DNA of 64,000 nt, taken from contig OY744615.1 of NCBI GenBank assembly GCA_963556255.1, forward strand, positions 23,573,191 to 23,637,190. The letters run 5' to 3'. How positions within the stretch are numbered: position 1 is the stretch's first letter; each line of letters opens with the position of its first letter. Below the pieces are notes generated by a model. It made no database searches. It was not told where the DNA came from and was given only the letters and a program-made list of their open reading frames with translations. This DNA comes from Allolobophora icterica (taxonomy: Eukaryota; Annelida; Clitellata; Crassiclitellata; Lumbricidae). The position numbers and the translations under genes are program-made. Shown here piece after piece: positions 16,258-63,788 of this stretch.

Positions 16258-16697
<440 letters not shown>

Positions 16698-18755: not shown

Positions 18756-19596
18756 CAGGCATGGGCAACTTCTTTTAACAGAGGGCCGACCTAAGATTTT
18801 AAGGGCAGCTCAGGGGCCGCATGCTAATCGCGGGCTAATTTTTGCAGATTCATTTGCCCAAGAAAATAAGACAATATTAATTTTATTCAAACTAACTATT
18901 GCTATTATACCCGTTACTGCTAAATTTATGTTAAACTAAATGAAGATAATTTTTATGATGAAAATATAATTATCCTAATTACCTACTGTACAGTCCTACA
19001 CTAAAATAAAATACTAAATATGTTAAAAGTTTCTTCAGCTTAAAAATATATATATAAAACCGTTAGTGTACAATGTATCCATATGCTTGGTGTGCTATAT
19101 TTAATAATTAATGTGAAATCTGACACTTCTTGTCACGACACAATTTATCCAGCATGGTTGATTTTAAAAAAAAATTCATTAGAAAGATTGTCATTTGTTA
19201 GTCTGCATCTGCTTCTGTATTTTTTCAATTTCATCTTTGAGAAGAATTGTTCACAAATATCGGTGCTTGGAAACAGTGCAACCATTTTCAGGGCATGAAA
19301 TCTAAGTGAAGATGGCTTCCAAAGTTTCGAACCTACCCACTGTGTGGTATTGTTTCAGGCAGAAAGTAATTACATTGATGAATGAGTAGTGAACTAGTTG
19401 ACTAGACAAGAGGCCGGATTCTTAATAATTAAGAAACAGATGTTTTAATGTCGGCCTACGTACAGAGATTCAGAAATTCATGTATGGCCGGATAAAAGTG
19501 CCAGATACAATGCTAATATTAAAGACGTGTCAAGGGCCGGTTGAAAAGTCCCCGGGGGCCGGATCCGGCCCGCGGGCCGTATGTTGCCCACCCCTG
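18756..19596. mobile_element. hAT element B nested in element A
   Basis: 841 bp. The left end CAGGCATGGGCAACTT and right end TGTTGCCCACCCCTG are inverted repeats. The 8-bp duplication ATCTAAAG is exact on both sides (18748-18755 and 19597-19604). It contains GC-rich subterminal blocks (GGGCCGGATCCGGCCCGCGG) and a fossil hAT dimerisation domain on the minus strand. Confidence 0.92.
19145..19306 (-). pseudogene. hAT transposase C-terminal (hATC) fossil of element B
   Basis: The minus-strand frame LKMVALFPSTDICEQFFSKM, then KLKKYRSRCRLTNDNLSN, ends in a stop. It matches the hATC core (FgSTy.CEq.FS.Mk..Ksk.RsrLTdehL) of GTF2IRD2/ZBED5-like transposases. Only the last ~53 residues survive, so element B is non-autonomous. 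Confidence 0.8.
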
Positions 19597-20398
19597 ATCT
19601 AAAGGCTAAAACCAGGCGAATTCCACAAATTTCTAATTCTACAAGTCCAGAGTACACAATCCGGAAATAGACCAGCATATTGCCAATGAAGCCTTTACTG
19701 GAGGAACCACTAGAGTCCATTTTTGACATTTTTTAAAAGCTAACTACGTCTTGTAATACTTAATGCTGTAGACTATTAAAGCAAGTGTGTTTTTTCAGAA
19801 AACCCAAGTCAGTCCAGAGTTACAATTATAAGAAAATATAGGCTGGTAAAACTGGCGGCTTCAGGTCGACGGCACCAACGGCACGAACTTTTATTGAAAG
19901 AAATATATACTTTAAGGCCAAATGCACTGTTCAGAAGAAGTGACTAGTATATATTAAAGTTTCTTTATTGAAAGCACACGTAATATATGCCTATAATTCA
20001 TTATAAGTCGTTTTTCAATGTCAATAAAGAAAACTTGGATAGGATATGGACAACGGCACAATGGCAAGAAGCAAGGACTTTTTATAGAAAGGACTGGTAA
20101 CTGCCTATTTAACGCCTTTGGAAAAGTTATGGCGTCCGTAGAGTGTAGCGCCTCTAGCGGCAAATGCGTATAAAGTGTTTAATCGTTGAATAATTATTTC
20201 TTCGGCAATAAACAATTGCCTTTATATATCAAAGCATTATATTTAATGGGCGCTATATTGTCCATTACCATATATATGACATTTTAAATACACTTTAAAG
20301 CTAATTTCTAATTACTTTTGCAATGCACAAGCGTGCCGCATTGGACTGACACTGTCTTAAGAATTCTTTAAACATCGTATAATATAGTATTACCGCAT

Positions 20399-20505
20399 TT
20401 GTATAGCGCCCCTCACAGGTGAGGCCACTCTAAATCCCTGCCAAGTATTTGCGTATTTGTATAGCGCCCCTCACACGTGAGGCCACTGTAAATCCTTGCC
20501 AATGA
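20399..20505 (-). repeat. Two tandem copies of a LINE-type 3' end
   Basis: The phrase TTTGTATAGCGCCCCTCACA...GTGAGGCCACT.TAAATCC.TGCC occurs twice, 61-62 bp apart. It includes the short hairpin CCTCAC..GTGAGG. The same 3' end appears at 62998-63040 attached to LINE coding sequence. Confidence 0.7.
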
Positions 20506-20599
20506 CGAATGCAACCAAGCCATTAATGAAATCGATGAGAAATTTTTGTTCTAAGAAAGGTCATGTTTGGTTGTGTGTGCGTGTAGTTGTGCGTGTATG

Positions 20600-20690
20600 T
20601 GTTTTTGGAGGTGTGTGTGTGTGTGTTTGTTTTTCTTTATGCGTTTGTGTGTACGTATGTGTTTCTGTATGTTCTCCTCTTGTTTCCGTC
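20600..20690. repeat. Degenerate (GT)n tract
   Basis: Imperfect TGTG/TGTGCG run within the giant element. Confidence 0.7.
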
Positions 20691-20959
20691 ACTTGGGGAT
20701 TGTCCTCCATCCTCCATTTCCTTTACCATTCACTTTAGCCTTATATCAAAATATTGTTTTTATCATATACGCCAGCTTCTATTCATACGCAGGTGTCTTT
20801 CAGTCCATACTGTCACTACGCTGGTCCACGCTTCTATCTGCACTCAGATGCACTTCAGTAAGGCTTTGTACATTGGCCTTTCCTCCTCCAAATAAACCAA
20901 GCTTCAATCTATTCTTTATGCTTCTGCTCTGCTTATATATGTGACATTCCTGAATTTGC

Positions 20960-21392
20960 CCATATATCTGCTTTTATTCGTAACTCCCTCAACTGGCTCC
21001 CTGCCCAACAAATAATTCAGTTCAAAACCATCACCCTCATGAGCAACTGCCTCACTGGTTCCGCTCCGTCTTACCCTATGAATTTCTTAATCCCTTTTGC
21101 TTCCTTGCCTGAGAGAGCTTCCTTGCTATCCTCAGCCCTTGGCCTTTTGGTTTTTCCACGTATGCACTCTTCCACCACCCAATGTGGAGGCCCAATGCTT
21201 TGCCTATTTGTGTCCTTCAGCCTCTAACAGTCTTCCCCATGCCCTCCGCCAATAGCTTCTTTCCCTCTCTCCTTTTCACTTCCATACTTGAAAACTTTAG
21301 TTTTTGCCGGTGCTTGTATTGATGCAAGTCTAGAGCGCCGCTTATCTGAGTGGCGCTATATAAATATTCGATTACAATTGCAATTACAATTA
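20960..21392 (+). pseudogene. 5'-truncated LINE, C-terminal end plus 3' tail
   Basis: The plus-strand frame NWLPAQQIIQFKTITLMSNC, then LTGSAPSYPMNFLIP, parallels the HWLPIAQRISYR..ALVSRCLLGCAPSYL segment of the intact LINE at 50336-53407. It ends in GGCGCTATATAAAT plus ATTCGATTACAATTGCAATT. Frames are broken. It inserted in the giant element or an ancestor of it. Confidence 0.7.
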
Positions 21393-21399
21393 TGTACGG

Positions 21400-23120
21400 T
21401 TGTGTACAATTTCATTACTGTTACAGTTCGAATGGCAAGTATCCAGACGTGTCATCCGGGGGTAGGCCTAATATGCCAGTCTTTTCTTTTATAAACTCTT
21501 TTTTTAGTGTTATATAGAAGCTTTGCTAAATGAATGTATTAATCCGTGTTAGGTGTTAAGAGCAAGACTAAGACTTTTTGTTTTAAATGCAAAACCAATA
21601 CTGTTATACACTAACTCAACTGCACTGCAAACCAAGACCGATGTATAGGTCTACTTAGGCCTACAGCACAACAAGACTAGTATCAATATGTTATAATCTA
21701 CACAAGGCTTCTTTATTAAAGTTTATTAAAACTGTTACTTATCATTTATAGGAATTTTTTAGGTGAAAAGTAAAGCAAACACAACGCAGGTATTTTCATT
21801 TTCCAATACAATTAATGTCATATAGGCCTACTAATGACGCGCAGGTATGCCTATACCTAGTTCTATAATAGCCTACAGCGTTGCAATGTCCTACGCTGAT
21901 TTTCGAAATGTAGTTTACTTAATTTACATTAAATTGAAGCAATATCTATAAAATTATGATATACCTTTCTTATTTATTTGTAAAGCGAAAGACATATAAT
22001 TCTGTATTCTTCTTCCTATAATTAGCAGCCTACAATTAACCGTTTCATATGAAAACAGCATAGCTTTTGTTAATTTGTTTACCTGTGTAGAGGCGCTTAT
22101 ACACCCTCAGCGCTATAATTGTGTCGCCACTATCTCAGCCTTACAGCCGAGTTACACATTATTCTCATGAGTAACCATTCCTTTTAATATACATTCCTTG
22201 TGCACCATGTGAACTCTGCAATATATGATGCTTAAAAGCCCTTCATATATTACCTAGGCCTACGCAGTGACTTTCTAATACATATATCTGTTTCTTTACG
22301 CTATTTTTTTACTTACTTATGAATGACACAGTGTTATCCAATATCACCTACTAATTGGCCAGTCCAAGCCTCTACAGGAAGATCAATAAAGAAAACGACA
22401 TATCGGATTGGTGCATAGCGTATCTTCAAAAACTTTACCACTTATAACAGTACACACTTCATTGCAGAAACATTGGTGAAAAGGGCATTTTACACGTACG
22501 CCTATAAGCCAAAGGTTATTTATTAATATAATTACTTACTTTATAATATAGTATGTATTACTTATGAACTGTATTAGACACTTTGCCGAAATGACAAGAT
22601 ATAGGCCTACAATAGCCTGCCAAGTTACTAGGTTGACTGCTTATAATAGGGGACGCGTTTTATACAGGAAGACCAATAAAGAACTGTATTGGAACTGCTG
22701 TAGAAGATCTGACATGTCTGGAAATGGATATGACGGTGAATGATGCTCTTGAAGTTGCGCAGAACATGGAATAATGGATGAACTGCTTTGCCCTATGTGC
22801 ATTTGTGCACTGTATTGACAAAGTACTAAGTAAATGAAGTATTATTTATTTCTGAATGTAATTTAATGTGAACACTTTGTGAAATGAAATTTTTATTTCC
22901 ATATATGATTATGAATGAAAATACTCTAAGCAATAACAATAACTCTACTGCTTATAGTATTTTAATTCATAGTCATCTATGGAAATAACTTAACCTTTAT
23001 TATATGTTATGCTTTCACAAGGAATACTTACACTACCGTTACAGAAATGTTTCATAAATGACCTAAGGTATTTCATTTCATGTCATTCAATAAAGCACAG
23101 GTGAAAGGTTATGAAAGTAA
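21400..23120. other. AT-rich interior of the giant element
   Basis: No recognised gene. The motif AGGAAGA(T/C)CAATAAAGAA occurs twice (about 22377 and 22667). Confidence 0.4.
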
Positions 23121-23129
23121 AATTTTTTA

Positions 23130-24235
23130 TGTACTTGATATGTAACAAGTCGAACACACAACATTGCACAACTCAACATATACCTAACCAATACTAATAT
23201 TGCATTTTACAAATAGCGCAAAGTTCAAACTATCTTCCTATCTTTCTCTCCTACTATCTCTGCTCCCATATGCCCAAAAGAAAAGAAAGAAATTCAAATA
23301 TTTGCTCTGTATACCTCTCTTCTGACCTCTTTCAAAGTATCTCTCTATCTGGCTGGCCTACTGTCTCTCAATAGGCCTACTACCTTTGAAGAAATGTTTC
23401 ATAAATGACCTAAACAATATCACTGACCAATACCAATATTGCATTGTCAATATAGCGCAAGCATTACTCCGTCGCTTTATATAACTGTCTTCTCACGTCT
23501 TTCAAACTATCTGTCTATCTCTCAGACCTACTATCTCTCAACACTAGCGTTAAAGAAATTTTTCAGAAACCACGTAAACACCCAACTTTGCTAAATTCAA
23601 CATATACCTTAAAAAAAACCAATATTGCATTGTCAATATAGCGCAAGCGTTACTTATTCGCTCTTTCAAACTTAAACCTATCTCTGTATCATTATCTTTC
23701 TCCTACTATCTCGGCAGCCATTTGCCCAAAAAAAACAAAGACAGTTAAACACACTACTGCATCACTAGTTCACAACTCTACATATTCCTCAACAATACCA
23801 ATATTGCATTGTCAAACTTCAAACTATCTCTGTATCATTTTCAGTGTCCTACTATTTCTGCACCCATTTGGCAAAAAACAAAAACAAAGACAGTTAAACG
23901 CCCTACTGCATTAGTACTTCACAACTGTAAATATACCTCACCAAGAACAATATTGCATTGTCAAAATAGCGCACGCTTCACTTAGTCGCTATTTAAAAGT
24001 TCAAACTATCTCTGTATCATTCTCTGTCTCCTACTAAGTGGGCAGCCATTTGCCCAAAAACAAACAAAGACAGTTAAACACACTACTGCATGACTATTTC
24101 TTAACTCTACATATATGTCGGCAATACCAATGTTTCATTGTCAATGTAGCGCAAGCTTTACTTATAATATTCGCTCTTGCAAAGTGCAAACTATCTCTAT
24201 ATCATTCTCTCCTACTATTTCTCAACTAACATGCA
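23130..24235. repeat. Diverged tandem repeats, period about 140-190 bp
   Basis: At least six degenerate copies sharing CAATATTGCATTGTCAA, TATAGCGCAAGC, CAAACTATCTCTGTATCATT and TTTGCCCAAAAA, in the same order and orientation. They are older and much more diverged than the satellite further right. Confidence 0.7.
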
Positions 24236-24486
24236 CACAAACCAAAGTGGAAAGTCAAATACACAACGCACGAGAATTGCACCATTTCTTCGTGTTCAAT
24301 TACAACCTGTTCTTCCTATACATTTCCTCAGCCTCCTGCCTTGTCACTTCCCTCATTTCTTGTATTGCAAAGACAATAACCTAAAACCAACATACAAAAC
24401 AGTTCAACATGTACATATTGCTTAACAATTAATCTTAAATAACATATATTCCATTATATTTTTAACTAATTATAATTGTTACTAGA

Positions 24487-24574
24487 TGTTTGCCCGTCCT
24501 AAGACGGTAGGCCCTATACTAATTGTTTCTATAGGGCCTATAGAAACAATTTGTTTGCCCGTCCTAATACGGTA
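24487..24574. repeat. Palindrome flanked by direct repeats
   Basis: AATTGTTTCTATA-GGGCC-TATAGAAACAATT is a perfect 13-bp-arm palindrome, flanked by two direct copies of TGTTTGCCCGTCCTAA.ACGG (24487 and 24552). Confidence 0.65.
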
Positions 24575-25593
24575 TTTCAATAGATTTAGAAGGGGCTCCT
24601 ATGTGTCGTTACCCAGGCTACGTAGAGAATTAAACTGATAGCCTACACTAACATCGCAGGCAATAATCGCAGGTTACGCAATATACTAAACGCTAAATAC
24701 TCATAATTTCGTTAAGAATTTCGTTGACAGACAATTGTAACCCAACATTCATTTACTTTGCACAAAATCTTCAGTGAAATATGAAACCGGAAGGACTTCC
24801 TTGAAATACTACATGAACCTAGCATACTTCACATGTTACATTATGTGTGTTTCTGTCTTACACTTCCTTCAAATCATCTTATAAAAAATACAGTTATCTT
24901 TCCCTCTTTATTCCTGGTCTTTCCCTTCCACAAAATCACTTACTCACGTACACAACATTCATTTCTATTAGTAACATAATTAGAATATTAGAATATTTCT
25001 AGTAGTTATATAATGTACTGTTAGTAACATAATTACTTGTAGTACTAACGTCATTATAAAATTTCATCCATTTCTAGTACTAACATAATTGGAAAAAACA
25101 TATAAAAGCCATACATTCATCTTCTCTTCATTATATGAATTGCCATATTCACCTATCAGTCATCTTTCCTTCAGCTGCTGTTACAACGACATTCACTAAA
25201 CAGCAATCGTCATCACCTTCTTCAGCTACTTTGTTATGCCATTCGTCTGAACGAGTCTGTATTTACATATGAAATTCAATTTCTTTGACACATTTCATTA
25301 ATCTTTCAATCACAGTCTGAAACTATCCGTTACGTAACGAAACCATATATAACTTTTCATAATAGCCTAGCAGTATGGCATCTGTTTATACAATTACCCA
25401 CATACAGTGTAATGCAACTTTTAACTTTTAACTTTACATATTGCAATTTAATTGAACTACATTGTAATGAATTCCATTTGTTCCATGCACATACCAGTCT
25501 CTATACATTCGTTCTTACCTCACCTTCAAATACCTTATTCTTTGTATATTAATTACTACAATAAACGACATTCTCCTTGGTATTTTCGTTTAC

Positions 25594-25662
25594 CGATGAT
25601 CCTGGAAGGCCGTCACGTGTAATGCACTTGTCCACTGGTCCTTCAACGTCGTCACTATGAAT
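25594..25662 (-). CDS. Repeat exon 3 of the cargo gene
   Basis: 69 bp, acceptor GTCCAG, donor GTAAACG, phase 0-0. Encodes IHSDDVEGPVDKCITRDGLP then GSS. Confidence 0.6.
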
Positions 25663-27257
25663 CTGGACCGTTTCCTAACACTTTAAATAAGTGAGAGTCA
25701 TTTAGTAACTCCCTTTCCATAGTTTAATGTCATTTCATTTGTCGCCGTTCATAATTTCGTTAAGAATTTCGTTGACAGACAATTGTAACCCAACATTCCA
25801 CGTTAATAATGTAATACCGTTTAATGAAGTACATTTCTTCCACCCACCTCATGCTGTATACATTCGTTCTTAACTGACATTCAAATACCTTTATATCTGT
25901 ATATAAATTAATACAATAAACTAAATTTTTCTGTGTACTTTCGTTTACCGATGATCCTGGAAGGCCGTCATGTGTAATGCACTTTTCCACTGGTCCTTCA
26001 ACGTCGTCACTATGACTCTGCACTGTTTCCTAAAATTTAAAATAAGTAACAGGCAATTAGTAAGTCCCTTTGCATATTTTCACATATTTGTCGCCTTCAA
26101 TAATTTCATTCACAGACAATTGTAATAGAAAAATGCCACTCTTCATAGAAATGTATACATATTTCAGTACATTACATGTTCCTCATACAGGTTTCTGCAG
26201 CAACATTCTAGTGGAACGTTCATAATTGAAGACCGTGTAATTAAGTACATTTCTTCCATACAACTACCATGCTCCATGCTCCATACATTCGTTCGTAAAT
26301 GACCTTCAAATACCTTAATATTTGTTTATTAATAAATACAACAAAAGACAATTTTTTCTGTATTTTCCTTTACCAATGATAGTGGAACGCCTTCAGTTGT
26401 AATGCACTTGTCCACTGGTCCTTCAACGTCGTCACTATGAATCTGCACTGTTTCCTAACAGTTGAAATAACTAACAGTCATTTAGTAAGTCCCCTTGCAT
26501 AGTTTCCTATATTTCTCGCCGTTAAGAATTTCATTCAGATACAACAGTTACTGTAACAGAACATTCCAGTATTCCCAGAAATGTATACATAGTTCACTAC
26601 ATTACATATTTCTCAATCTCATACCGGTTCTGGCAGGAACATTGCAGTGGAACGTTCTTAAGTAAAGAGTTTGTAATGAAGTCTATTTCTGCCATACAAA
26701 TAACAGGCTCCAGACATTCGTGCTTAACTTACCTTCACTGCATTTTCTTCTCCATTATCAGTGCAATTGTGACATGTCCATTCCTCATATGGAGCTTTTA
26801 TAGTGTCAGTTAATGCTTTGATGCACTTCGTGTGATACCAATTGGCACATATTGAGCATTTTATCATTGGTTGTCCGTTATACGGAACGTGACAAACGCA
26901 GTACACCATTAACTTTGACACCTTTACATGTGTTGTCTCTTTTAATCGCATACGAATATGTGTGAAAGGAACATCAATTTCCCAGTCGCTTTCCAAGAAC
27001 TGTCTGCAACTGTTCATTAGCACACACTCGTCATACACGCTTCCCGTAGGATCCTGACGCAGGCAGCAGGAAACTGCTGCTGCCAAAGCGTAAAAACCGC
27101 AGAGGCGTGAATTGTTCGACTGTATATCGAACATGCGTACGTGAAATGTGATCGTGTCACGTAGCGGGTCATCGTTCCAGTCGTCGTTATCACGCAATAG
27201 AGACGACACCTGTTCGTGAATAATAGACACAGCACTTACTAATAAGCGGCCATCCAT
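25594..27257 (-). CDS. Cargo gene of the giant element: ULP-like fragment + PHD finger + triplicated exons
   Basis: Minus strand, four visible exons joined in phase 0: 27257-26733, 26442-26374, 26017-25949 and 25662-25594. The first exon carries QSNNSRLCGFYALAAA, resembling the catalytic Gln/Cys region of C48 (ULP/SENP) cysteine peptidases, with Leu where the usual Asp precedes Cys53. It is followed by a complete C4HC3 PHD finger. The next three exons are 69-bp near-copies encoding HSDDVEGPV(D/E)KCIT. The N-terminal half of a ULP domain (His, Asp) is not visible, so the gene may be truncated or start further upstream. ULP proteases cleave ubiquitin-like modifiers and PHD fingers read histone tails. 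Its role in the element is unknown. Confidence 0.6.
25949..26017 (-). CDS. Repeat exon 2 of the cargo gene
   Basis: 69 bp, acceptor CAGTGCAG, donor GTAAACG, phase 0-0. Encodes SHSDDVEGPVEKCITHDGLP then GSS. Confidence 0.6.
26374..26442 (-). CDS. Repeat exon 1 of the cargo gene
   Basis: 69 bp, acceptor CAGTGCAG, donor GTAAAG, phase 0-0. Encodes IHSDDVEGPVDKCITTEGVP then LSL. Flanking intron sequence is also repeated, showing tandem duplication of 355- to 425-bp blocks. Confidence 0.6.
26733..27257 (-). CDS. ULP-like/PHD exon of the cargo gene
   Basis: 175 codons ending AAG|GTAAGT (phase 0). PHD ligands in frame numbering: Cys120, Cys122, Cys134, Cys137, His142, Cys145, Cys162, Cys165, all present. 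A ULP-like Gln46...Cys53-Gly-Phe-Tyr-Ala-Leu-Ala segment precedes it. ULP-PHD fusions are familiar from large animal transposons (family knowledge, not proven here). The upstream start is uncertain: an AG near 27265 could be an acceptor. Confidence 0.65.
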
Positions 27258-27400
27258 ATATTACCTACGCTTAGCTGTACGTACACATAGGGGGCCTGCC
27301 AAATGTACGCTTTTATACAGCTGTGAGGGTCCTTTTAACATGCTATGTTTTTCCTTACGTAATATATGGATGACCCCTAAACACTGATTATAGCTATATG

Positions 27401-27582
27401 CAGGGACGTATCTAGCGTTGGGCTTGGGGGGGCTTAAGCCCCCCCCCCAACGAAGTTGAAGCCCCCCCAAACAAGTCAAGCCGTTGTATGCTTACGGCTA
27501 AAATTCGTATGAACACTGTATAAATGTTGCCATGTTCAAAGCTTAAGCCCCCCCCAAACGAAAAAGGCTAGTTACGTGCCTG
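27401..27582. mobile_element. 182-bp hAT MITE
   Basis: The left end CAGGGACGTATCTAGC and right end GGCTAGTTACGTGCCTG are inverted. The exact 8-bp duplication GCTATATG flanks it (27393-27400 and 27583-27590). The interior has C-rich runs (AAGCCCCCCCC) and is non-coding. Confidence 0.92.
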
Positions 27583-27830
27583 GCTATATGTCATGCGGAA
27601 TAATTTCAAATGTTTAATTCTGTGTTGATATTAGTGGCCGCTGACATTCGTTACAAGGTGTCTCATATTTACAGAGTTAATTCGAAAAGTTTCTATTTAG
27701 GTCTCATGGAATCTCTTTACTTCTAATGCATTGTGTTAATAATCACATTGTCTGTTACATAAGTTTGATTTGTCCTTCTCATACACATCCCAAAAGTCAA
27801 CATTCTTGTATACACAGGTACTAGTGAAAT

Positions 27831-30800
27831 GCGGTTTGAGATTTGGAGCGTTGTGTGTGTAGGCCTATGTAAGGAATGGACGAATGTCTTATTTGCCCGT
27901 TAATAAACCTGTGAAGACGCTATAGAAGCTGTATGTGTATTTGTTTGTGCGTGTTATAGGCTTATAGTGAGGCGCATTGCTATATATATACAAATGAATT
28001 GGAGTCAGCGGTTTGAGATTTGGAGCGTTGTGTGTGTAGGCCTATGTAAGGAATGGACGAATGTCTTATTTGCCCGTTAATAAACCTGTGAAGACGCTAT
28101 AGAAGCTGTATGTGTATTTGTTTGTGCGTGTTATAGGCTTATAGTGAGGCGCATTGCTATATATATACAAATGAATTGGAGTCAGCGGTTTGAGATTTGG
28201 AGCGTTGTGTGTGTAGGCCTATGTAAGGAATGGACGAATGTCTTATTTGCCCGTTAATAAACCTGTGAAGACGCTATAGAAGCTGTATGTGTATTTGTTT
28301 GTGCGTGTTATAGGCTTATAGTGAGGCGCATTGCTATATATATACAAATGAATTGGAGTCAGCGGTTTGAGATTTGGAGCGTTGTGTGTGTAGGCCTATG
28401 TAAGGAATGGACGAATGTCTTATTTGCCCGTTAATAAACCTGTGAAGACGCTATAGAAGCTGTATGTGTATTTGTTTGTGCGTGTTATAGGCTTATAGTG
28501 AGGCGCATTGCTATATATATACAAATGAATTGGAGTCAGCGGTTTGAGATTTGGAGCGTTGTGTGTGTAGGCCTATGTAAGGAATGGACGAATTTCTTAT
28601 TTGCCCGTTAATAAACCTGTGAAGACGCTATAGAAGCTGTATGTGTATTTGTGTGTGTAGGCCTATGTAAGGAATGGACGAATGTCTTATTTGCCCGTTA
28701 ATAAACCTGTGAAGACGCTATAGAAGCTGTATTTGTTTGTGCGTGTGATAGGCTTATAGTGAGGCGCATTGCTATATATATACAAATGAATTGGAGTCAG
28801 CGGTTTGAGATTTGGAGCGTTGTGTGTGTAGGCCTATGTAAGGAATGGACGAATGTCTTATATGCCCGTTAATAAACCTGTGAAGACGCTATAGAAGCTG
28901 TATGTGTATTTGTTTGTAGGCTTATAGTGAGGCGCATTGCTATATATATACAAATGAATTGGAGTCAGCGGTTTGAGATTTGGAGCGTTGTGTGTGTAGG
29001 CCTATGTAAGGAATGGACGAATGTCTTATTTGCCCGTTAATAAACCTGTGAAGACGCTATAGAAGCTGTATGTGTATTTGTTTGTGCGTGTTATAGGCTT
29101 ATAGTGAGGCGCATTGCTATATATATACAAATGAATTGGAGTCAGCGGTTTGAGATTTGGAGCGTTGTGTGTGTAGGCCTATGTAAGGAATGGACGAATT
29201 TCTTATTTGCCCGTTAATAAACCTGTGAAGACGCTATAGAAGCTGTATGTGTATTTGTGTGTGTAGGCCTATGTAAGGAATGGACGAATGTCTTATTTGC
29301 CCGTTAATAAACCTGTGAAGACGCTATAGAAGCTGTATTTGTTTGTGCGTGTGATAGGCTTATAGTGAGGCGCATTGCTATATATATACAAATGAATTGG
29401 AGTCAGCGGTTTGAGATTTGGAGCGTTGTGTGTGTAGGCCTATGTAAGGAATGGACGAATGTCTTATATGCCCGTTAATAAACCTGTGAAGACGCTATAG
29501 AAGCTGTATGTGTATTTGTTTGTAGGCTTATAGTGAGGCGCATTGCTATATATATACAAATGAATTGGAGTCAGCGGTTTGAGATTTGGAGCGTTGTGTG
29601 TGTAGGCCTATGTAAGGAATGGACGAATGTCTTATTTGCCCGTTAATAAACCTGTGAAGACGCTATAGAAGCTGTATGTGTATTTGTTTGTGCGTGTTAT
29701 AGGCTTATAGTGAGGCGCATTGCTATATATATACAAATGAATTGGAGTCAGCGGTTTGAGATTTGGAGCGTTGTGTGTGTAGGCCTATGTAAGGAATGGA
29801 CGAATTTCTTATTTGCCCGTTAATAAACCTGTGAAGACGCTATAGAAGCTGTATGTGTATTTGTGTGTGTAGGCCTATGTAAGGAATGGACGAATGTCTT
29901 ATTTGCCCGTTAATAAACCTGTGAAGACGCTATAGAAGCTGTATTTGTTTGTGCGTGTGATAGGCTTATAGTGAGGCGCATTGCTATATATATACAAATG
30001 AATTGGAGTCAGCGGTTTGAGATTTGGAGCGTTGTGTGTGTAGGCCTATGTAAGGAATGGACGAATGTCTTATTTGCCCGTTAATAAACCTGTGAAGACG
30101 CTATAGAAGCTGTATGTGTATTTGTTTGTGCGTGTGATAGGCTTATAGTGAGGCGCATTGCTATATATATACAAATGAATTGGAGTCAGCGGTTTGAGAT
30201 TTGGAGCGTTGTGTGTGTAGGCCTATGTAAGGAATGGACGAATGTCTTATTTGCCCGTTAATAAACCTGTGAAGACGCTATAGAAGCTGTATGTGTATTT
30301 GTTTGTGCGTGTGATAGGCTTATAGTGAGGCGCATTGCTATATATATACAAATGAATTGGAGTCAGCGGTTTGAGATTTGGAGCGTTGTGTGTGTAGGCC
30401 TATGTAAGGAATGGACGAATGTCTTATTTGCCCGTTAATAAACCTGTGAAGACGCTATAGAAGCTGTATGTGTATTTGTTTGTGCGTGTTATAGGCTTAT
30501 AGTGAGGCGCATTGCTATATATATACAAATGAATTGGAGTCAGCGGTTTGAGATTTGGAGCGTTGTGTGTGTAGGCCTATGTAAGGAATGGACGAATTTC
30601 TTATTTGCCCGTTAATAAACCTGTGAAGACGCTATAGAAGCTGTATGTGTATTTGTGTGTGTAGGCCTATGTAAGGAATGGACGAATGTCTTATTTGCCC
30701 GTTAATAAACCTGTGAAGACGCTATAGAAGCTGTATTTGTTTGTGCGTGTGATAGGCTTATAGTGAGGCGCATTGCTATATATATACAAATGAATTGGAG

Positions 30801-33800
30801 TCAGCGGTTTGAGATTTGGAGCGTTGTGTGTGTAGGCCTATGTAAGGAATGGACGAATGTCTTATTTGCCCGTTAATAAACCTGTGAAGACGCTATAGAA
30901 GCTGTATGTGTATTTGTTTGTAGGCTTATAGTGAGGCGCATTGCTATATATATACAAATGAATTGGAGTCAGCGGTTTGAGATTTGGAGCGTTGTGTGTG
31001 TAGGCCTATGTAAGGAATGGACGAATGTCTTATTTGCCCGTTAATAAACCTGTGAAGAAGCTATAGAAGCTGTATGTGTATTTGTTTGTGCGTGTGATAG
31101 GCTTATAGTGAGGCGCATTGCTATATATACAAATGAATTGGAGTCAGCGGTTTGAGATTTGGAGCGTTGTGTGTGTAGGCCTATGTAAGGAATGGACGAA
31201 TGTCTTATTTGCCCGTTAATAAACCTGTGAAGACGCTATAGAAGCTGTATGTGTATTTGTTTGTGCGTGTTATAGGCTTATAGTGAGGCGCATTGCTATA
31301 TATATACAAATGAATTGGAGTCAGCGGTTTGAGATTTGGAGCGTTGTGTGTAGGCCTATGTAAGGAATGGACGAATTTCTTATTTGCCCGTTAATAAACC
31401 TGTGAAGACGCTATAGAAGCTGTATGTGTATTTGTGTGTGTAGGCCTATGTAAGGAATGGACGAATGTCTTATTTGCCCGTTAATAAACCTGTGAAGACG
31501 CTATAGAAGCTGTATTTGTTTGTGCGTGTGATAGGCTTATAGTGAGGCGCATTGCTATATATATACAAATGAATTGGAGTCAGCGGTTTGAGATTTGGAG
31601 CGTTGTGTGTGTAGGCCTATGTAAGGAATGGACGAATGTCTTATTTGCCCGTTAATAAACCTGTGAAGACGCTATAGAAGCTGTATGTGTATTTGTTTGT
31701 AGGCTTATAGTGAGGCGCATTGCTATATATATACAAATGAATTGGAGTCAGCGGTTTGAGATTTGGAGCGTTGTGTGTGTAGGCCTATGTAAGGAATGGA
31801 CGAATGTCTTATTTGCCCGTTAATAAACCTGTGAAGAAGCTATAGAAGCTGTATGTGTATTTGTTTGTGCGTGTGATAGGCTTATAGTGAGGCGCATTGC
31901 TATATATACAAATGAATTGGAGTCAGCGGTTTGAGATTTGGAGCGTTGTGTGTGTAGGCCTATGTAAGGAATGGACGAATGTCTTATTTGCCCGTTAATA
32001 AACCTGTGAAGACGCTATAGAAGCTGTATGTGTATTTGTTTGTGCGTGTTATAGGCTTATAGTGAGGCGCATTGCTATATATATACAAATGAATTGGAGT
32101 CAGCGGTTTGAGATTTGGAGCGTTGTGTGTGTAGGCCTATGTAAGGAATGGACGAATTTCTTATTTGCCCGTTAATAAACCTGTGAAGACGCTATAGAAG
32201 CTGTATGTGTATTTGTTTGTGCGTGTGCTATGCTTATAGTGAGGCGCATTGCTATATATATACAAATGAATTGGAGTCAGCGGTTTGAGATTTGGAGCGT
32301 TGTGTGTGTAGGCCTATGTAAGGAATGGACGAATTTCTTATTTGCCCGTTAATAAACCTGTGAAGACGCTATAGAAGCTGTATGTGTATTTGTTTGTGCG
32401 TGTGATAGGCTTATAGTGAGGCGCATTGCTATATATATACAAATGAATTGGAGTCAGCGGTTTGAGATTTGGAGCGTTGTGTGTGTAGGCCTATGTAAGG
32501 AATGGACGAATTTCTTATTTGCCCGTTAATAAACCTGTGAAGACGCTATAGAAGCTGTATGTGTATTTGTGTGTGTAGGCCTATGTAAGGAATGGACGAA
32601 TGTCTTATTTGCCCGTTAATAAACCTGTGAAGACGCTATAGAAGCTGTATTTGTTTGTGCGTGTGATAGGCTTATAGTGAGGCGCATTGCTATATATATA
32701 CAAATGAATTGGAGTCAGCGGTTTGAGATTTGGAGCGTTGTGTGTGTAGGCCTATGTAAGGAATGGACGAATGTCTTATTTGCCCGTTAATAAACCTGTG
32801 AAGACGCTATAGAAGCTGTATGTGTATTTGTTTGTAGGCTTATAGTGAGGCGCATTGCTATATATATACAAATGAATTGGAGTCAGCGGTTTGAGATTTG
32901 GAGCGTTGTGTGTGTAGGCCTATGTAAGGAATGGACGAATGTCTTATTTGCCCGTTAATAAACCTGTGAAGACGCTATAGAAGCTGTATGTGTATTTGTT
33001 TGTGCGTGTGATAGGCTTATAGTGAGGCGCATTGCTATATATATACAAATGAATTGGAGTCAGCGGTTTGAGATTTGGAGCGTTGTGTGTGTAGGCCTAT
33101 GTAAGGAATGGACGAATTTCTTATTTGCCCGTTAATAAACCTGTGAAGACGCTATAGAAGCTGTATGTGTATTTGTGTGTGTAGGCCTATGTAAGGAATG
33201 GACGAATGTCTTATTTGCCCGTTAATAAACCTGTGAAGACGCTATAGAAGCTGTATTTGTTTGTGCGTGTGATAGGCTTATAGTGAGGCGCATTGCTATA
33301 TATATACAAATGAATTGGAGTCAGCGGTTTGAGATTTGGAGCGTTGTGTGTGTAGGCCTATGTAAGGAATGGACGAATGTCTTATTTGCCCGTTAATAAA
33401 CCTGTGAAGACGCTATAGAAGCTGTATGTGTATTTGTTTGTGCGTGTGATAGGCTTATAGTGAGGCGCATTGCTATATATATACAAATGAATTGGAGTCA
33501 GCGGTTTGAGATTTGGAGCGTTGTGTGTGTAGGCCTATGTAAGGAATGGACGAATGTCTTATTTGCCCGTTAATAAACCTGTGAAGACGCTATAGAAGCT
33601 GTATGTGTATTTGTTTGTGCGTGTGATAGGCTTATAGTGAGGCGCATTGCTATATATATACAAATGAATTGGAGTCAGCGGTTTGAGATTTGGAGCGTTG
33701 TGTGTGTAGGCCTATGTAAGGAATGGACGAATGTCTTATTTGCCCGTTAATAAACCTGTGAAGACGCTATAGAAGCTGTATGTGTATTTGTTTGTGCGTG

Positions 33801-35913
33801 TTATAGGCTTATAGTGAGGCGCATTGCTATATATATACAAATGAATTGGAGTCAGCGGTTTGAGATTTGGAGCGTTGTGTGTGTAGGCCTATGTAAGGAA
33901 TGGACGAATTTCTTATTTGCCCGTTAATAAACCTGTGAAGACGCTATAGAAGCTGTATGTGTATTTGTGTGTGTAGGCCTATGTAAGGAATGGACGAATG
34001 TCTTATTTGCCCGTTAATAAACCTGTGAAGACGCTATAGAAGCTGTATTTGTTTGTGCGTGTGATAGGCTTATAGTGAGGCGCATTGCTATATATATACA
34101 AATGAATTGGAGTCAGCGGTTTGAGATTTGGAGCGTTGTGTGTGTAGGCCTATGTAAGGAATGGACGAATGTCTTATTTGCCCGTTAATAAACCTGTGAA
34201 GACGCTATAGAAGCTGTATGTGTATTTGTTTGTAGGCTTATAGTGAGGCGCATTGCTATATATATACAAATGAATTGGAGTCAGCGGTTTGAGATTTGGA
34301 GCGTTGTGTGTGTAGGCCTATGTAAGGAATGGACGAATGTCTTATTTGCCCGTTAATAAACCTGTGAAGAAGCTATAGAAGCTGTATGTGTATTTGTTTG
34401 TGCGTGTGATAGGCTTATAGTGAGGCGCATTGCTATATATACAAATGAATTGGAGTCAGCGGTTTGAGATTTGGAGCGTTGTGTGTGTAGGCCTATGTAA
34501 GGAATGGACGAATGTCTTATTTGCCCGTTAATAAACCTGTGAAGACGCTATAGAAGCTGTATGTGTATTTGTTTGTGCGTGTTATAGGCTTATAGTGAGG
34601 CGCATTGCTATATATATACAAATGAATTGGAGTCAGCGGTTTGAGATTTGGAGCGTTGTGTGTAGGCCTATGTAAGGAATGGACGAATTTCTTATTTGCC
34701 CGTTAATAAACCTGTGAAGACGCTATAGAAGCTGTATGTGTATTTGTGTGTGTAGGCCTATGTAAGGAATGGACGAATGTCTTATTTGCCCGTTAATAAA
34801 CCTGTGAAGACGCTATAGAAGCTGTATTTGTTTGTGCGTGTGATAGGCTTATAGTGAGGCGCATTGCTATATATATACAAATGAATTGGAGTCAGCGGTT
34901 TGAGATTTGGAGCGTTGTGTGTGTAGGCCTATGTAAGGAATGGACGAATGTCTTATTTGCCCGTTAATAAACCTGTGAAGACGCTATAGAAGCTGTATGT
35001 GTATTTGTTTGTAGGCTTATAGTGAGGCGCATTGCTATATATATACAAATGAATTGGAGTCAGCGGTTTGAGATTTGGAGCGTTGTGTGTGTAGGCCTAT
35101 GTAAGGAATGGACGAATGTCTTATTTGCCCGTTAATAAACCTGTGAAGAAGCTATAGAAGCTGTATGTGTATTTGTTTGTGCGTGTGATAGGCTTATAGT
35201 AAGGCGCATTGCTATATATACAAATGAATTGGAGTCAGCGGTTTGAGATTTGGAGCGTTGTGTGTGTAGGCCTATGTAAGGAATGGACGAATGTCTTATT
35301 TGCCCGTTAATAAACCTGTGAAGACGCTATAGAAGCTGTATGTGTATTTGTTTGTGCGTGTTATAGGCTTATAGTGAGGCGCATTGCTATATATATACAA
35401 ATGAATTGGAGTCAGCGGTTTGAGATTTGGAGCGTTGTGTGTGTAGGCCTATGTAAGGAATGGACGAATTTCTTATTTGCCCGTTAATAAACCTGTGAAG
35501 ACGCTATAGAAGCTGTATGTGTATTTGTTTGTGCGTGTGCTATGCTTATAGTGAGGCGCATTGCTATATATATACAAATGAATTGGAGTCAGCGGTTTGA
35601 GATTTGGAGCGTTGTGTGTGTAGGCCTATGTAAGGAATGGACGAATTTCTTATTTGCCCGTTAATAAACCTGTGAAGACGCTATAGAAGCTGTATGTGTA
35701 TTTGTTTGTGCGTGTGATAGGCTTATAGTGAGGCGCATTGAAGATTTGGAGATTTGGAGCGTTGTGTGTGTATAGGCATATATGTAAATAATGGACGAAT
35801 TTCTTATTTTTAAATGAAAGTCAGATTCACTGTGTGCCCGTTAAATAAACCTGTGAAGACGCTATAGAAGCTGTATGTGTATTTGTGTGTGCGTGTGATA
35901 GGCTTATAGTGAG
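27831..35913. repeat. 8-kb satellite array, 177-bp monomer with higher-order structure
   Basis: About 45 near-identical monomers beginning GCGGTTTGAGATTTGGAGCG. Full copies are exactly 177 bp apart (27831, 28008, 28185, 28362, 28539). Deletion variants form composite units. The diagnostic GAATTTCTTATT variant starts units at 28539, 29145, 29751, 30543, 31324, 32103, 32280, 32457, 33063, 33855, 34636, 35415 and 35592, giving 606, 779-781 and 792-bp units and a 3,312-bp super-repeat. Each monomer has TATATATATA and an AATAAA. The last copy (about 35741-35913) is degenerate. Confidence 0.95.
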
Positions 35914-36476
35914 GGAAGAAGGAAGAAAAGGAATGAGGTTGCGAGAAAAAGAAGCAAATGGGCAGGCGAAATAATACAATAGGGCCTACAATACAAAGCG
36001 CTTTTAACAGCACTGAAAGTGGTTGGCAGAAATTGACGGGTGGCAGTCCAAATACGGCGGCTATTATGCTCTTCTTTCACACTCCTGTAGTAACATATGA
36101 CCACCTGCTTGGGGGTCATTTCAAAAAATTTTTGTGTTTCAAAATAGGGTTTCTATTATTTCTTAAACGTATTACGCTATATGTAATAAATGCAGAAATC
36201 ATTAAACAAGCGATCATTAAATAAGCGAAACGGCTACAACAGGTGGTTAAAAAATTGATGCAGGGTAGCAGAATAGGACAGACTCGGCTGACTTTCAAAG
36301 CTGGCTGTTCTAAAGGCTGATAAGCCGCTGAATGCGCCTTCCAACCGATTATAAAAAGCCGCTGACTGCGCCTTAGGCCGCTGACGGCAGGCGCTGGCGC
36401 AGACTGCATACGCAGCTGAAATGGACTTGGAGTTGGAGTTGGACTTGGACTTTCGTGCCGCCAGTTTTACCGGGCC
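35914..36476. other. Right subterminal region of the giant element
   Basis: No recognised gene. GC-richer end with repeated AAGCCGCTGA(A/C)TGCGCCTT (about 36320 and 36357) and repeated TTGGA(C/G)TTGGA near the right terminus. Confidence 0.45.
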
Positions 36477-37089
36477 AGAAAATATAGCGTTTATGTAAAA
36501 ACAACTAGCCTAGAGTCCTAGCTAGAGCTTCGGTGTTTCTTCCATGGAAAAAACAATCAGGCTCATATTCAGTGTTGATTTTCTAAATGAAACACTTGTA
36601 GACTTTCAAAGTTTGTTTTGTGAATATCTTAAACTTTTTAAAATTGAATCTATTTGTAGGCCTACTTCTGATGAAGGCTTCAAATACATCGCGCTTACAT
36701 TGGGTGCATAAATGATTGGCAGTCGATTAGCAGAAATTATAGGCCCTATATTAAATTTTATAAAAACACACGTGTTATTAGGCTGGAAATGTAACGTGAC
36801 CATTAGCCTACATCTTATTTACGTCACTGTAGGCCCTAGTACGCAAAGAATAATTATCAGCAGCATCACAAAACTGGTGTGATCGAATACCCAATTGGAT
36901 CCTTGTAGATCATACAGTTACAGGCACACTATAAGTAGCGTATGAATTTGAAAACACAGGCTGTTAATGCTAAAACCATGCAATGTTAAGCATCACATTA
37001 TTTTCAGAACGCTCTCGCGGACCCCCGCCAAATCCTTCGCGGACTCCCAGGGGTCCGCGGACCACAGTTTGAAAAACTCTGACTTAAAA

Positions 37090-37291
37090 GATACTCTGCG
37101 AACACTAGAGCTAAATGTGCGCACACAGCCGTACAATTTTCATCTTGTAATTTATAATCTTTTGTGTACAGGAACACTAGCGACACCAAGTAGGCGGTAC
37201 AAACATGTGTGTGAAGACAGTTTCATGTAAATCGTGTATGTAACGAAATTTGTTTAATTTATTAAATATTTCGGAATAAAACTGTCATATC
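37090..37291 (+). promoter_or_regulatory. Short 5' region of DHX34 next to the hAT A target duplication
   Basis: Only 202 bp separate the ACTTAAAA duplication from the DHX34 ATG, so promoter and 5' UTR either lie here or within transposon sequence. No clear TATA box was identified; TTTATTAAATATTTCGGAATAAA precedes the start codon. Confidence 0.35.
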
Positions 37292-40200
37292 ATGTCAAGT
37301 GATAATACAGCACGTGTGCGTTCAAGTCAGAACTGTAAATCGAACAACTCTAAGAAGTACAACAGAGAGCACAAGCACAGGGACAGAAGTCCAGCAGAAA
37401 GCTTTCGCGAAACCAAACGATACACAACGGATGAGTCTGCCAGTAGAAGTAACAGAACAGATAAACACGAACCGTCATACAAGAAATCTCGTAGTTACCG
37501 TGACGGCCCAGAAGCAGATAATCGTGAAGATCGAAGGCACAGAAGATATGCTGAAGATTCGGAGGAACAGTCGTCCAGCGAGCGACTGGCTTCTCCTGGG
37601 GTCCGTCGGAGGAAACAGGCTGAGGAGGACGACATCGACCGTAAATCACGCCAAGTCGGCGACACGGATCAAAAGGAAGAAGCAGGTGTGTTGAATGATG
37701 ATGTTGATATAGACTGGGAGGCGTACAGATCAATTCTCGATGGGATATTCTTTCGCGAAGTTGACGTTATTAAACGAAACAGCCAAGAATATCACGACTT
37801 CTGGCTGTTTCTTAAGAAGTACGAAGATTTTCAGAGGAGAAACCCACACAGAAGATCAAAGATGCTTACGGAAGACCTTGAGAACAGTGTTCACAGTGGT
37901 CAATTAGACATTCCAAACGTTTACAACAAACGATACCGGATAAATATTTCGTTGGGTTGTAAGAACATGGACAGTGCCCTTCAAAGGCAACCAAAATATT
38001 GTCGCAGTGGAATGCCTGAGCTGACAGCAATACAACTGAAATACTTTCAACAGGTTCTTCTACACTATTCTGACTTTCAACAGAAGCAAAAATTTGCAAG
38101 ACTCAAAAAGATTAAGAAGGATCAGCAAAACTTACCAATACACCAATATAAAGCAGAAGTACTAGAAGCAGTTGCACAGAACCAAGTCGTGGTGGTTGCA
38201 GGTGACACAGGATGTGGCAAATCAACGCAGGTGCCTCAATACCTGTTAGAAGCTGGCTATGAGAACATTGCCTGCACCCAACCACGACGAATTGCGTGCA
38301 TTTCACTGTCAAAGCGAGTGTCTTTTGAGACATTGAACGAGTATGGGTCAGAGGTTGCATTTCAGGTGCGATTTGAAAAAAGTCGGACAAAAGCAACAAA
38401 AATCCTGTTTTTGACCGAGGGACTGCTTCTTCGGCAGATAGAAATTGATCCAAGCCTCAAGCAGTACAACGTGATCTTGATTGACGAGGTCCACGAGCGA
38501 CACATTCACACGGACTTCCTGCTTGGTGTAATCAAGTGCATCCTTCACCAGAGATCCGACCTGAAGCTGGTTCTCATGTCGGCAACTATAAACATCGAGC
38601 TATTCAGCGGTTACTTTGACAATGCACCAGTCTGTAAAGTTCCAGGAAGATTGTATCCCATACAGCTTCAGTACATTCCCAAAGATGCCACGGAAGTAGG
38701 AGAGAAGAAAGATCGCCTGGATCCTAGTCCCTATCTGAGAATCTTACAGCTGATTGATCATAAATATCCACCAACTGAAAGAGGAGATGTGCTGATCTTC
38801 CTCAGCGGACTGTCGGACATCATGTCGGTGGTTGAGGCTGCCAAAGAATATGCTCAGAAAGTGAAATCTTGGATTGTTCTTCCACTTCACAGTGCACTTT
38901 CGATTGCCGAGCAAGATAAGGTCTTTGACTATGCCCCAGAAGGAATCCGAAAGTGTGTTGTGTCGACCAACATTGCTGAAACTTCTGTGACAATTGATGG
39001 AATTCGATTCGTAGTTGACTCGGGGAAGGTCAAAGAGATGAACTATGACACAAAATTTGGTATGCAGAAACTACACGAGTTTTGGATCAGCCGAGCAAGT
39101 GCCGAGCAACGCAAGGGTCGAGCAGGAAGAACAGGTCCAGGAGTATGCTATCGTCTTTACTCCGAGTCTGATTATGATGCATTTCAGGATTATTCCACTC
39201 CAGAAATCCAACGAGTGCCACTCGACAGTCTCCTATTACAATTGATATCAATGGGGCTTCCCGATGCACGAAAGTTTCCTTTTATAGAACCTCCACCTAA
39301 AGCAAGCATTGAAACATCTATTGCATTTCTTAAAGAACAAGGTGCTCTGCTTGAAAATGAGCAAATGACCCCAATTGGTGAGCTGCTGGCTCAGCTCCCT
39401 GTTGACGTAATTGTAGGTAAAATGCTCATTATGGCATCAGTGTTTGATATGATCGATCCTGTCCTTACAATCGCTGCTGGACTGTGTGTCCACTCCGTAT
39501 TTACAACTAAAGCACATCGTGACTATGATGCCACGCAGCTGCGGAAGTCGTTCGAGTCGGACCATGGTGACCCACTAACACTATTAAATGCGTTTGATTC
39601 GTGGGTCAAGGTGAAGGCCGATGGTGGTGACAGCCGGAAGTGGTGTAGGAGGCGAGGACTAGAAGAGCAGCGTTTCTACGAAATGACTAAACTCAAACAG
39701 CAGTTTCGTGAGTTGCTTATAGATCATGGACTCCTGAACCGGGAAGTTACGGACACGTACGTTGACCCTGAGGACCGACGCAAGAAAGTGATTGACCGAC
39801 GCAAATTGAGCGAGCTGAGGCATGAGCACAGGAAAACATCCAGGAAGCGCAAGGTGCTTAAGATGGAGGATGATGACTGGGATATTGAACATGGTGAGGA
39901 ATCTGATGAGAAAGCAGAGGATCCTGTTGAAGATCTTGACGGAAGCATCAAAGATCTAGAATTTCGGCTGAAGAACGATATGACATCGTTGCACGAGAAA
40001 GCAAATGCCAGTCGCAGTCTAACACAAAAGGAACTGATCATGCTGAAGGTGATACTGTGCAGCGGCCTTTATCCACAGGTTGCCATTGCAGATGAGCACA
40101 ATAGCTTCAAAGCAGAAACTGATCAGGTTTTTCACACAAAGAGAAAGGGTTTTGTACTTCTCCACCCAACCAGCGTGTTCACTTTGAACCCAGATGTCTT

Positions 40201-42086: not shown

Positions 42087-55535
<13,449 letters not shown>

Positions 55536-59816: not shown

Positions 59817-63788
<3,972 letters not shown>

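What the first reader, a model, noticed from the sequence alone, without database searches (positions are those of the whole stretch)
19841..36476. A 16.6-kb transposon-like unit carrying a chromatin-type gene and an 8-kb satellite
Seen: inverted ends sharing GGTAAAACTGGCGGC and an exact 10-bp duplication, AGAAAATATA, on both sides. Known: 9-10 bp duplications are typical of Mutator-like elements, and some plant MULEs carry ULP-type genes. Inferred: the whole block, including the ULP/PHD gene and satellite, moved as one unit, an animal counterpart to gene-carrying MULEs. No transposase is visible, so it may be trans-mobilised.
Basis: partly seen in the sequence, partly recalled or inferred. 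Interest (0 to 1): 0.88.

Follow-up and report, generated by a model that had tools for sequence, protein, structure and literature searches.

The report
Satellite-swollen Mutator-like transposon lacking transposase
A 16.6-kb block of what is likely an animal genome carries matching inverted ends and an exact 10-base duplication, and is likely a Mutator-type jumping gene in which no transposase was found, which keeps part of what is likely its own protease/chromatin-reader gene, and nearly half of which is tandem satellite DNA.

Summary
Observation confirmed: 19841-36476 is bounded by inverted ends (15 bp exact, GGC tips) and an exact 10-bp direct repeat, AGAAAATATA; one such hit in the window, none in 400 model windows. 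Interpretation partly supported. A 10-bp duplication and GGC tips fit Mutator-like elements; none of 103 frames scanned outside the satellite matched a transposase. The "captured" gene is better read as the element's own: the C-terminal half of a Ulp1-like protease plus a PHD finger, continued by predicted exons. Of 65 related proteins retrieved, four carry a transposase-tail-like motif upstream and one is fused to a Ginger-type integrase. Ulp1 in animal Mutator transposons was in print in 2010 (PMC2836005). The protease half with the catalytic His was not found in the window. The satellite (49 monomers, 11 types) holds a 2.73-kb block repeated with one mismatch, so part of it likely grew in place; "all 16.6 kb moved together" is not shown. 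PHD plus internal satellite most resembles Rehavkus, but the TIR is shorter and the array much longer. Genome-wide copies, the decisive test, could not be examined: the genome search did not complete (23 requests).

The parts
19831..19840 (.). left target-site duplication AGAAAATATA
19841..19859 (+). left terminal inverted repeat GGCTGGTAAAACTGGCGGC
20386..20502 (+). two subterminal 58-bp direct repeats (about 89% alike)
   Evidence: TRF; self-BLAST
20689..21182 (+). degraded non-LTR (LINE) fragment nested in the element: 43% aa identity over 82 aa and 27% over 83 aa to the LINE frame at 50336-53428, one in-frame stop
   Evidence: tblastn E 5.8e-19
23153..24261 (.). diverged tandem-like repeats (66-91% alike), overlapping the 3' flank of the predicted gene
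   Evidence: self-BLAST; TRF
24300..24380 (-). predicted last exon (VIVFAIQEMREVTRQEAEEMYRKNRL, stop); acceptor TTTTAG
   Evidence: read from sequence, no transcript
25149..25256 (-). uncertain extra exon (open acidic frame after AATACAG); its GATAG/GTGAAT donor would put the last exon out of frame
25594..25674 (-). predicted acidic exon copy 3, 81 nt, phase 0
25949..26029 (-). predicted acidic exon copy 2, 81 nt, phase 0
26374..26454 (-). predicted acidic exon copy 1, 81 nt, phase 0
26733..27209 (-). main exon: C-terminal half of a Ulp1-like cysteine protease (Q-x6-C present) plus PHD finger; ends at a consensus donor AAG/GTAAGT
   Evidence: PHD E 1.4e-7; relatives; model
27831..35910 (.). 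satellite array, main monomer 177 bp, 49 monomers of 11 exact types, higher-order repeats, a 2.73-kb block repeated with one mismatch; right edge read by eye
36457..36476 (-). right terminal inverted repeat (minus strand GGCCCGGTAAAACTGGCGGC)
36477..36486 (.). right target-site duplication AGAAAATATA

Best explanation
The block 19841-36476 has inverted ends and an exact 10-bp flanking duplication, and is likely one insertion of a non-autonomous Mutator-like DNA transposon, predicted to be moved in trans by a transposase encoded elsewhere. Shown: the ends, the duplication, the PHD-encoding frame, the satellite, and no transposase match in the 103 frames scanned outside the satellite. Inferred: the element descends from one whose protein carried a Ulp1-like protease and PHD finger C-terminal to its transposase; the DNA-cutting part and the protease half with the catalytic His were lost, while the Q..C half plus PHD, followed by three tandem acidic exons, stayed open. 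Inferred: the transposase of an intact relative binds the short GGC..TAAAACTGGCGGC ends and joins them to a target cut with a 10-bp stagger, which gives the duplication; the target lies about 0.8 kb before a DHX34-like gene, in line with the reported tendency of Mutator elements to insert in or near genes. Inferred: the satellite lengthened in part by unequal exchange after insertion, so the inserted unit was probably shorter than 16.6 kb.
For: Ends and duplication beyond chance. MULE duplications are 8-11 bp and TIRs can be as short as 13-14 bp; G/C bases at the first three TIR positions are reported for most arthropod MULEs (PMC6446971 passages; PMC13359780 passages and section 12). 65 relatives retrieved in three searches; 51 of 65 match the window at E<=1e-3, each in this one exon; 31 of 51 start exactly at 27212, 8 at 27221-27260, 12 further in, none beyond 27260, so the N-terminal half is not found. 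P0010, P0011 and P0012 keep H, D, Q and C in Ulp1-like order. An NA.VES.F-type motif upstream of the module occurs in P0020, P0033, P0043 and P0058: 4 of 65, or 4 of the 9 that reach more than 150 aa upstream of the DHW motif. In a tree of 37 relatives plus the window, the window falls with P0020, P0033, P0043 and P0030 in a 32-row group (100/99), apart from the integrase-fused P0061. Ulp1 in Mutator transposons of hydra and lancelet, and Ulp1 and PHD aligned between Ginger1 and Mutator transposases: PMC2836005 passages. Satellite block 29699-32428 equals 33011-35740 with one mismatch.
Against: No second copy of the ends was seen, because the genome search did not complete; P0001 (one residue different, short contigs) may be another copy of the exon or an allele. 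No transposase was found, so the superfamily rests on duplication length, tips and the protein module; introns could hide a split domain from the frame scan, and only Pfam was used. The TIR is only about 20 bp, the next 400 bp not alike. The Ulp1 label rests on relatives and motif order: Pfam, NCBIfam and a PDB profile search gave no Ulp1 hit for the window frame or for P0010-P0012; of 15 relatives scanned, Pfam C48 passes its cut-off only in P0056, P0061 and P0062, and P0011, P0015, P0020 and P0030 instead brush Josephin, another cysteine protease, below cut-off (E 0.008-0.05). 'Transposase tail' for the upstream segment is my recall; no library hit supports it. The label 'tail' does not cluster significantly in the tree. 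16.6 kb exceeds the 1.4-10.0 kb reported for arthropod MULEs. The three exon copies differ mostly by amino-acid-changing codons (7, 5 and 3 against 0, 2 and 2 synonymous), no sign of purifying selection.
Confidence: 0.66

Rival explanations
1. A small non-autonomous element with these ends inserted first; the gene piece and the satellite arrived or grew later by separate events, so the 16.6-kb unit never moved as such.
For: Near-identical 2.73-kb satellite block and only 11 monomer types among 49; nested LINE piece; the satellite begins about 620 bp upstream of the exon, on the side where the missing N-terminal half would lie.
Against: The gene piece belongs to a protein family found with a transposase-like motif and in Mutator and Ginger transposons, which is what such an element should contain.
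Confidence: 0.2
2. Not a Mutator element but a transposon of another or undescribed superfamily that makes 10-bp duplications and carries a Ulp1-PHD tail, for example a distinct Rehavkus-type line.
For: Rehavkus is described with a 9-bp TSD, PHD finger and minisatellite before the 3' TIR (PMC6446971 passages), and a 164-bp satellite in the inverted termini of Rehavkus-1_TC (PMC10218199 passages). The Ulp1 module also sits on a Ginger-type integrase in P0061, so the module does not fix the superfamily.
Against: Ginger1 makes 4-bp duplications and Zisupton 8 bp, which do not fit 10 bp.
Confidence: 0.2
3. Gene capture: a host Ulp1/PHD gene fragment was picked up between the ends, Pack-MULE style.
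For: Only part of the gene is present and it keeps what look like introns.
Against: Relatives of the protein are transposon-borne. PMC8277862 reports no Pack-MULE in 100 animal genomes (passages), but it looked only at inner lengths up to 5 kb.
Confidence: 0.07
4. Chance: an inverted 15-mer and a 10-bp AT-rich repeat fell together, or the block is an assembly artefact of the satellite.
For: The duplication is AT-rich; the window has 24 inverted 15-mers against 1.9 on average in models; near-identical satellite blocks are a known assembly hazard.
Against: 0 of 400 model windows match; the 10-bp repeat abuts GGC on both sides at base precision. The unique left and right parts do not depend on the satellite length.
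Confidence: 0.05

Closest known systems
MuDR-type (Mutator) DNA transposons with a Ulp1 domain in hydra and lancelet (Repbase Reports 2008 and 2009, cited in PMC2836005)
   Same: Ulp1-like protease module, with Ulp1 and PHD aligned between Mutator and Ginger1 transposases in that paper's figure legend; Mutator-length duplication here.
   Different: Here no transposase is recognisable, the His half of the protease is not found, and nearly half of the element is satellite.
Rehavkus (Rehavkus-1_TC, Rehavkus-1_HR)
   Same: PHD finger; tandem repeats inside the element near one end; TSD of 9 bp against 10 here.
   Different: Rehavkus TIRs are given as 26-400 bp, here about 20; [quoted passage not shown] Ulp1 was not mentioned for Rehavkus in the passages read.
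Ginger1 DNA transposons with Ulp1 or Ulp1-PHD tail
   Same: Related Ulp1 module (P0061 is an integrase plus this module).
   Different: TSD 4 bp (CCGG or CCGT), 5' ends TGTNR, gypsy-like integrase; P0061 lies outside the window's group in the tree.
Kaonashi / KI-MULEs and Pack-MULEs of plants
   Same: A Ulp-type protease gene inside a Mutator-like element (recalled; title and listing, KI-MULE in a passage of PMC8277862).
   Different: No evidence here for capture of a host gene; plant elements were not compared.

Membership tests
Mutator-like elements (MULE) | 8-11 bp target-site duplication | tested here: met
   exact 10 bp; range from PMC6446971
Mutator-like elements (MULE) | terminal inverted repeats (13 bp to over 1 kb), G/C at the tip | tested here: met
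   19/20-bp ends, 15 exact, GGC tips; ranges
Mutator-like elements (MULE) | MULE-family DDE transposase, its own or in an autonomous relative | tested here: inconclusive
   its own: none among 103 stop-to-stop frames of at least 38 aa in 19851-27840 and 35740-36466 (Pfam; satellite left out). A relative in the genome could not be sought (genome search did not complete). So it is called Mutator-like in structure, not a proven MULE
Mutator-like elements (MULE) | several copies with different duplications | not tested
   The genome search unanswered
Rehavkus | PHD finger | tested here: met
   PF00628, E 1.4e-7
Rehavkus | minisatellite next to the 3' TIR | tested here: inconclusive
   the array ends about 550 bp from the right TIR, but that is the 5' side of the PHD gene
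Rehavkus | TIR 26-400 bp | tested here: not met
   about 20 bp
Rehavkus | 9-bp duplication | tested here: not met
   10 bp
Rehavkus | Rehavkus transposase | not testable with these tools
   no reference sequence at hand; no transposase recognised in the element
Ginger1 | 4-bp CCGG/CCGT duplication and gypsy-like integrase | tested here: not met
   10-bp AT-rich duplication; no rve domain in the frames scanned
Zisupton (KDZ) | 8-bp duplication | tested here: not met
   10 bp exact beside GGC on both sides; 8 bp stated in PMC12730594 passages
Pack-MULE | captured host gene fragment | tested here: inconclusive
   gene piece has transposon-borne relatives; a parental host gene could not be sought
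Ulp1/C48 cysteine protease | catalytic His, Asp, Gln and Cys in order | tested here: not met
   window exon has Q-x6-C; the His half was not found in the window. P0010, P0011 and P0012 have all four (in P0011 H89, D108, Q145, C152)

The most novel reading that the evidence does not exclude
A Mutator-like element that has turned from a gene carrier into a satellite carrier: it keeps only the protease/PHD chromatin-reader half of its ancestral protein as a working accessory gene, grows an 8-kb higher-order satellite inside itself, and seeds that satellite at new sites near genes whenever its ends are mobilised in trans.
Probability: 0.1. Interest if true: 0.65.

Novelty: new variant of a known kind. 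Interest (0 to 1): 0.4.

Why it matters
If copies exist elsewhere, this is a clean case of a DNA transposon serving as vehicle and nursery of a higher-order satellite; whether satellites come from transposons or ride in them is an open question (PMC10218199 passages). It also gives a set of 65 Ulp1-PHD relatives for sorting out which transposases they belong to: one sits on a Ginger-type integrase, four downstream of another, unnamed transposase-like motif, which suggests exchange of the module between superfamilies. As it stands, it is one locus without its engine, and its components are known.

Tried and rejected
Tried: TIR pattern in viral contigs gave one match, L001, inside a 337-aa frame of a contig with phage-like genes, taken as chance. 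Ulp1-PHD profiles in viral contigs: 25 and 68 pattern matches, none a relative. Rfam on the window at gathering scores: no match. PHROGs on P0010-P0012: no match; NCBIfam on P0010-P0012: no match, and one weak unrelated hit for the window frame. PDB by sequence: the matches shown lie on the PHD part for the window frame (60 of 79 shown) and, up to E 0.5, for P0011; nothing credible for the protease part. Satellite frame NKTFVHSLHRPTH resembling the His motif of P0010 (E about 5): taken as chance. ORF start at 27257 as the true start: I read 27212 upstream as intron because most relatives begin to match there, after a CAG that could be an acceptor; but that Q is also coded in relatives without an interruption there, and eight proteins match up to 27221-27260 (one of them the near-identical P0001), so this is not settled. 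A TATAAAAG at about 27310-27317 on the minus strand was considered as a promoter and left unsupported. Host-gene capture, Ginger, Zisupton and hAT were considered and set lower (see rivals and membership). The neighbouring hAT as target of the insertion: rejected, it ends 234 bp away.

Not in print, as far as searched: a Mutator-type element with an 8-kb higher-order satellite did not appear in the titles and abstract starts listed; only open-licence papers are held. Papers seen: PMC6446971, PMC2836005, PMC10218199, PMC8277862 and PMC12730594 as passages only; PMC13359780 as passages and section 12; all others as search listing only.

Rows dropped: the tree used 37 of the 65 retrieved proteins plus the window (mostly short or partial ones left out by me; P0058 also left out); its 'tail' label included P0015 and P0045, where only a few residues of the segment remain. 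14 of 65 proteins gave no hit to the window at E<=1e-3. Only 11 of 65 were aligned for the upstream segment; the motif was then looked for in all 65. The third protein search scored only the 7,995 candidates sharing most words.

Mended on checking: the count of proteins with the transposase-tail-like motif (four by motif, not six), the distance satellite to exon, the LINE identities, and two membership rows (to inconclusive).
Full report
What was checked. The two ends read as described: AGAAAATATA / GGCTGGTAAAACTGGCGGC at 19831-19859, and GCCGCCAGTTTTACCGGGCC / AGAAAATATA at 36457-36486. The 15-base core occurs exactly twice in 64 kb. Searching for exact inverted 15-mers (simple repeats filtered) within six bases of exact 10-base direct repeats gave one hit in the window and none in 400 second-order Markov windows. 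With 12-base words chance hits do occur (4, 3 and 2 in 60 first-order model windows for duplications of at least 8, 9 and 10 bases), so the strength lies in the 15-base core, the 10-base duplication and the GGC tips together; the 12-base scan recovered a hAT element with its 8-base duplication. Further in, 400-bp stretches of the two ends are not alike beyond shuffled sequence.

What is inside. 103 stop-to-stop frames of at least 38 aa outside the satellite were scanned with Pfam, and only the PHD frame gave a convincing hit; no transposase. Introns could hide a split domain. The PHD frame on the minus strand reads as the C-terminal half of a Ulp1-like protease plus a PHD finger. It runs into a consensus donor and then three tandem 81-nt exons in phase 0, each with acceptor and donor, and a plausible last exon with a stop. 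Splicing is predicted from sequence only. The three exon copies are 89-94% identical, their flanks 78-85%; most differing codons change the amino acid, so selection on them is not shown.

Relatives. Three searches returned 65 proteins in all (P0001-P0065). P0001 differs by one residue and comes from short contigs (longest 965 bases): another copy or an allele. Of the 65, 51 match the window at E<=1e-3, each in this exon; 31 start exactly at 27212, eight a little upstream (27221-27260, one of them P0001), twelve inside; none reaches further. The half bearing the catalytic His, clear in P0010, P0011 and P0012 (RFVQIL...DHW, then FDS, YDS or FDG, then Q and C), was not found in the window (one search gave no credible match for it). 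Of 15 relatives scanned, Pfam recognises C48 above cut-off only in P0056, P0061 and P0062; four others brush Josephin below cut-off. The Ulp1 label for the window piece is therefore an inference through relatives and motif order.

Whose gene is it. P0020, P0033 and P0043 carry, upstream of the module, a shared segment with an NA.VES.F motif and RP..F block; P0030 keeps the RP..F block, and P0015 and P0045 a few residues of its end. A motif search of all 65 adds P0058: four with NA.VES.F, out of nine that reach more than 150 aa upstream of DHW. I read this as the tail of a DDE transposase from recall; no library names it. In a tree of 37 relatives plus the window, the window sits in a 32-row group (100/99) with P0020, P0033, P0043 and P0030, while the integrase fusion P0061 lies outside; the root is a midpoint and P0062 and P0013 are long branches. 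PMC2836005 (passages) reports Ulp1 in Mutator transposons of hydra and lancelet and aligns Ulp1 and PHD of Ginger1 with Mutator transposases. The economical reading is that the gene is the transposon's own module, not a passenger.

The satellite. 27831-35910 holds 49 complete monomers of 11 exact types in the order AAAABCGABCGABCDDABCEFHBCEFAIJBCEDBCDDABCEFHBCEKAI. Positions 29699-32428 recur at 33011-35740 with a single mismatch. That is recent unequal exchange, or an assembly fault; either way the present length need not be the length that inserted. A degraded LINE piece (20689-21182, E 5.8e-19) is nested towards the other end.

Filing. The duplication length and GGC tips fit Mutator-like elements (PMC6446971, PMC13359780). 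Rehavkus, a Mutator relative, has a PHD finger and a minisatellite near one end, and Rehavkus-1_TC bears a 164-bp satellite in its termini: the closest architecture. But the TIR here is too short, the duplication is 10 not 9, the array lies on the 5' side of the gene, and no transposase is there to test, so it is not filed as Rehavkus. Ginger1 (4 bp) and Zisupton (8 bp) fail on duplication length.

Setting. The insertion lies about 0.8 kb upstream of the start of an uninterrupted DHX34-like reading frame (37280-41122) and 234 bp right of a small hAT element (18756-19596).

Limits. The genome search, the decisive test, was requested 23 times and never answered; structure prediction was off. The verdict therefore rests on one locus.

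Noticed in passing
18756-19596: Small non-autonomous hAT element with ends CAGGCATGGGCAAC / CAGGGGTGGGCAAC and an exact 8-bp duplication ATCTAAAG.
   Followed up: partly
42319-45005: hAT element with ends CAGCGTTTCCCAAAC, 8-bp duplication GCCTAAGG and a hAT transposase C-terminal frame (Dimer_Tnp_hAT, E 1.6e-4).
   Followed up: partly
37280-41122: DHX34-like helicase read as one uninterrupted 1280-aa stop-to-stop frame, with a DHX34-type C2H2 finger; possible intron loss or retrocopy (3' flank seen, no long poly-A noticed).
   Followed up: partly
50336-53428: Open 1030-aa non-LTR retrotransposon frame (endonuclease-like start and reverse-transcriptase-like end, recalled, not scanned); a second, broken one at 61572-63118.
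   Followed up: no
16258-16696; 54817-55200; 60430-60900: Very long, nearly perfect microsatellites: ATG x146, ATC x128, ATCC x118.
   Followed up: no
24701-24750 and 25749-25798: Identical 50-bp stretches in different predicted introns of the gene, pointing to recent local duplication or conversion.
   Followed up: no
P0061 (eel Synaphobranchus kaupii): Gypsy-like integrase followed by a Ulp1 (C48) domain, a distant relative of the window gene: the module is shared between transposase types.
   Followed up: partly
11370-11569: A 200-base gap of N in the assembly.
   Followed up: no
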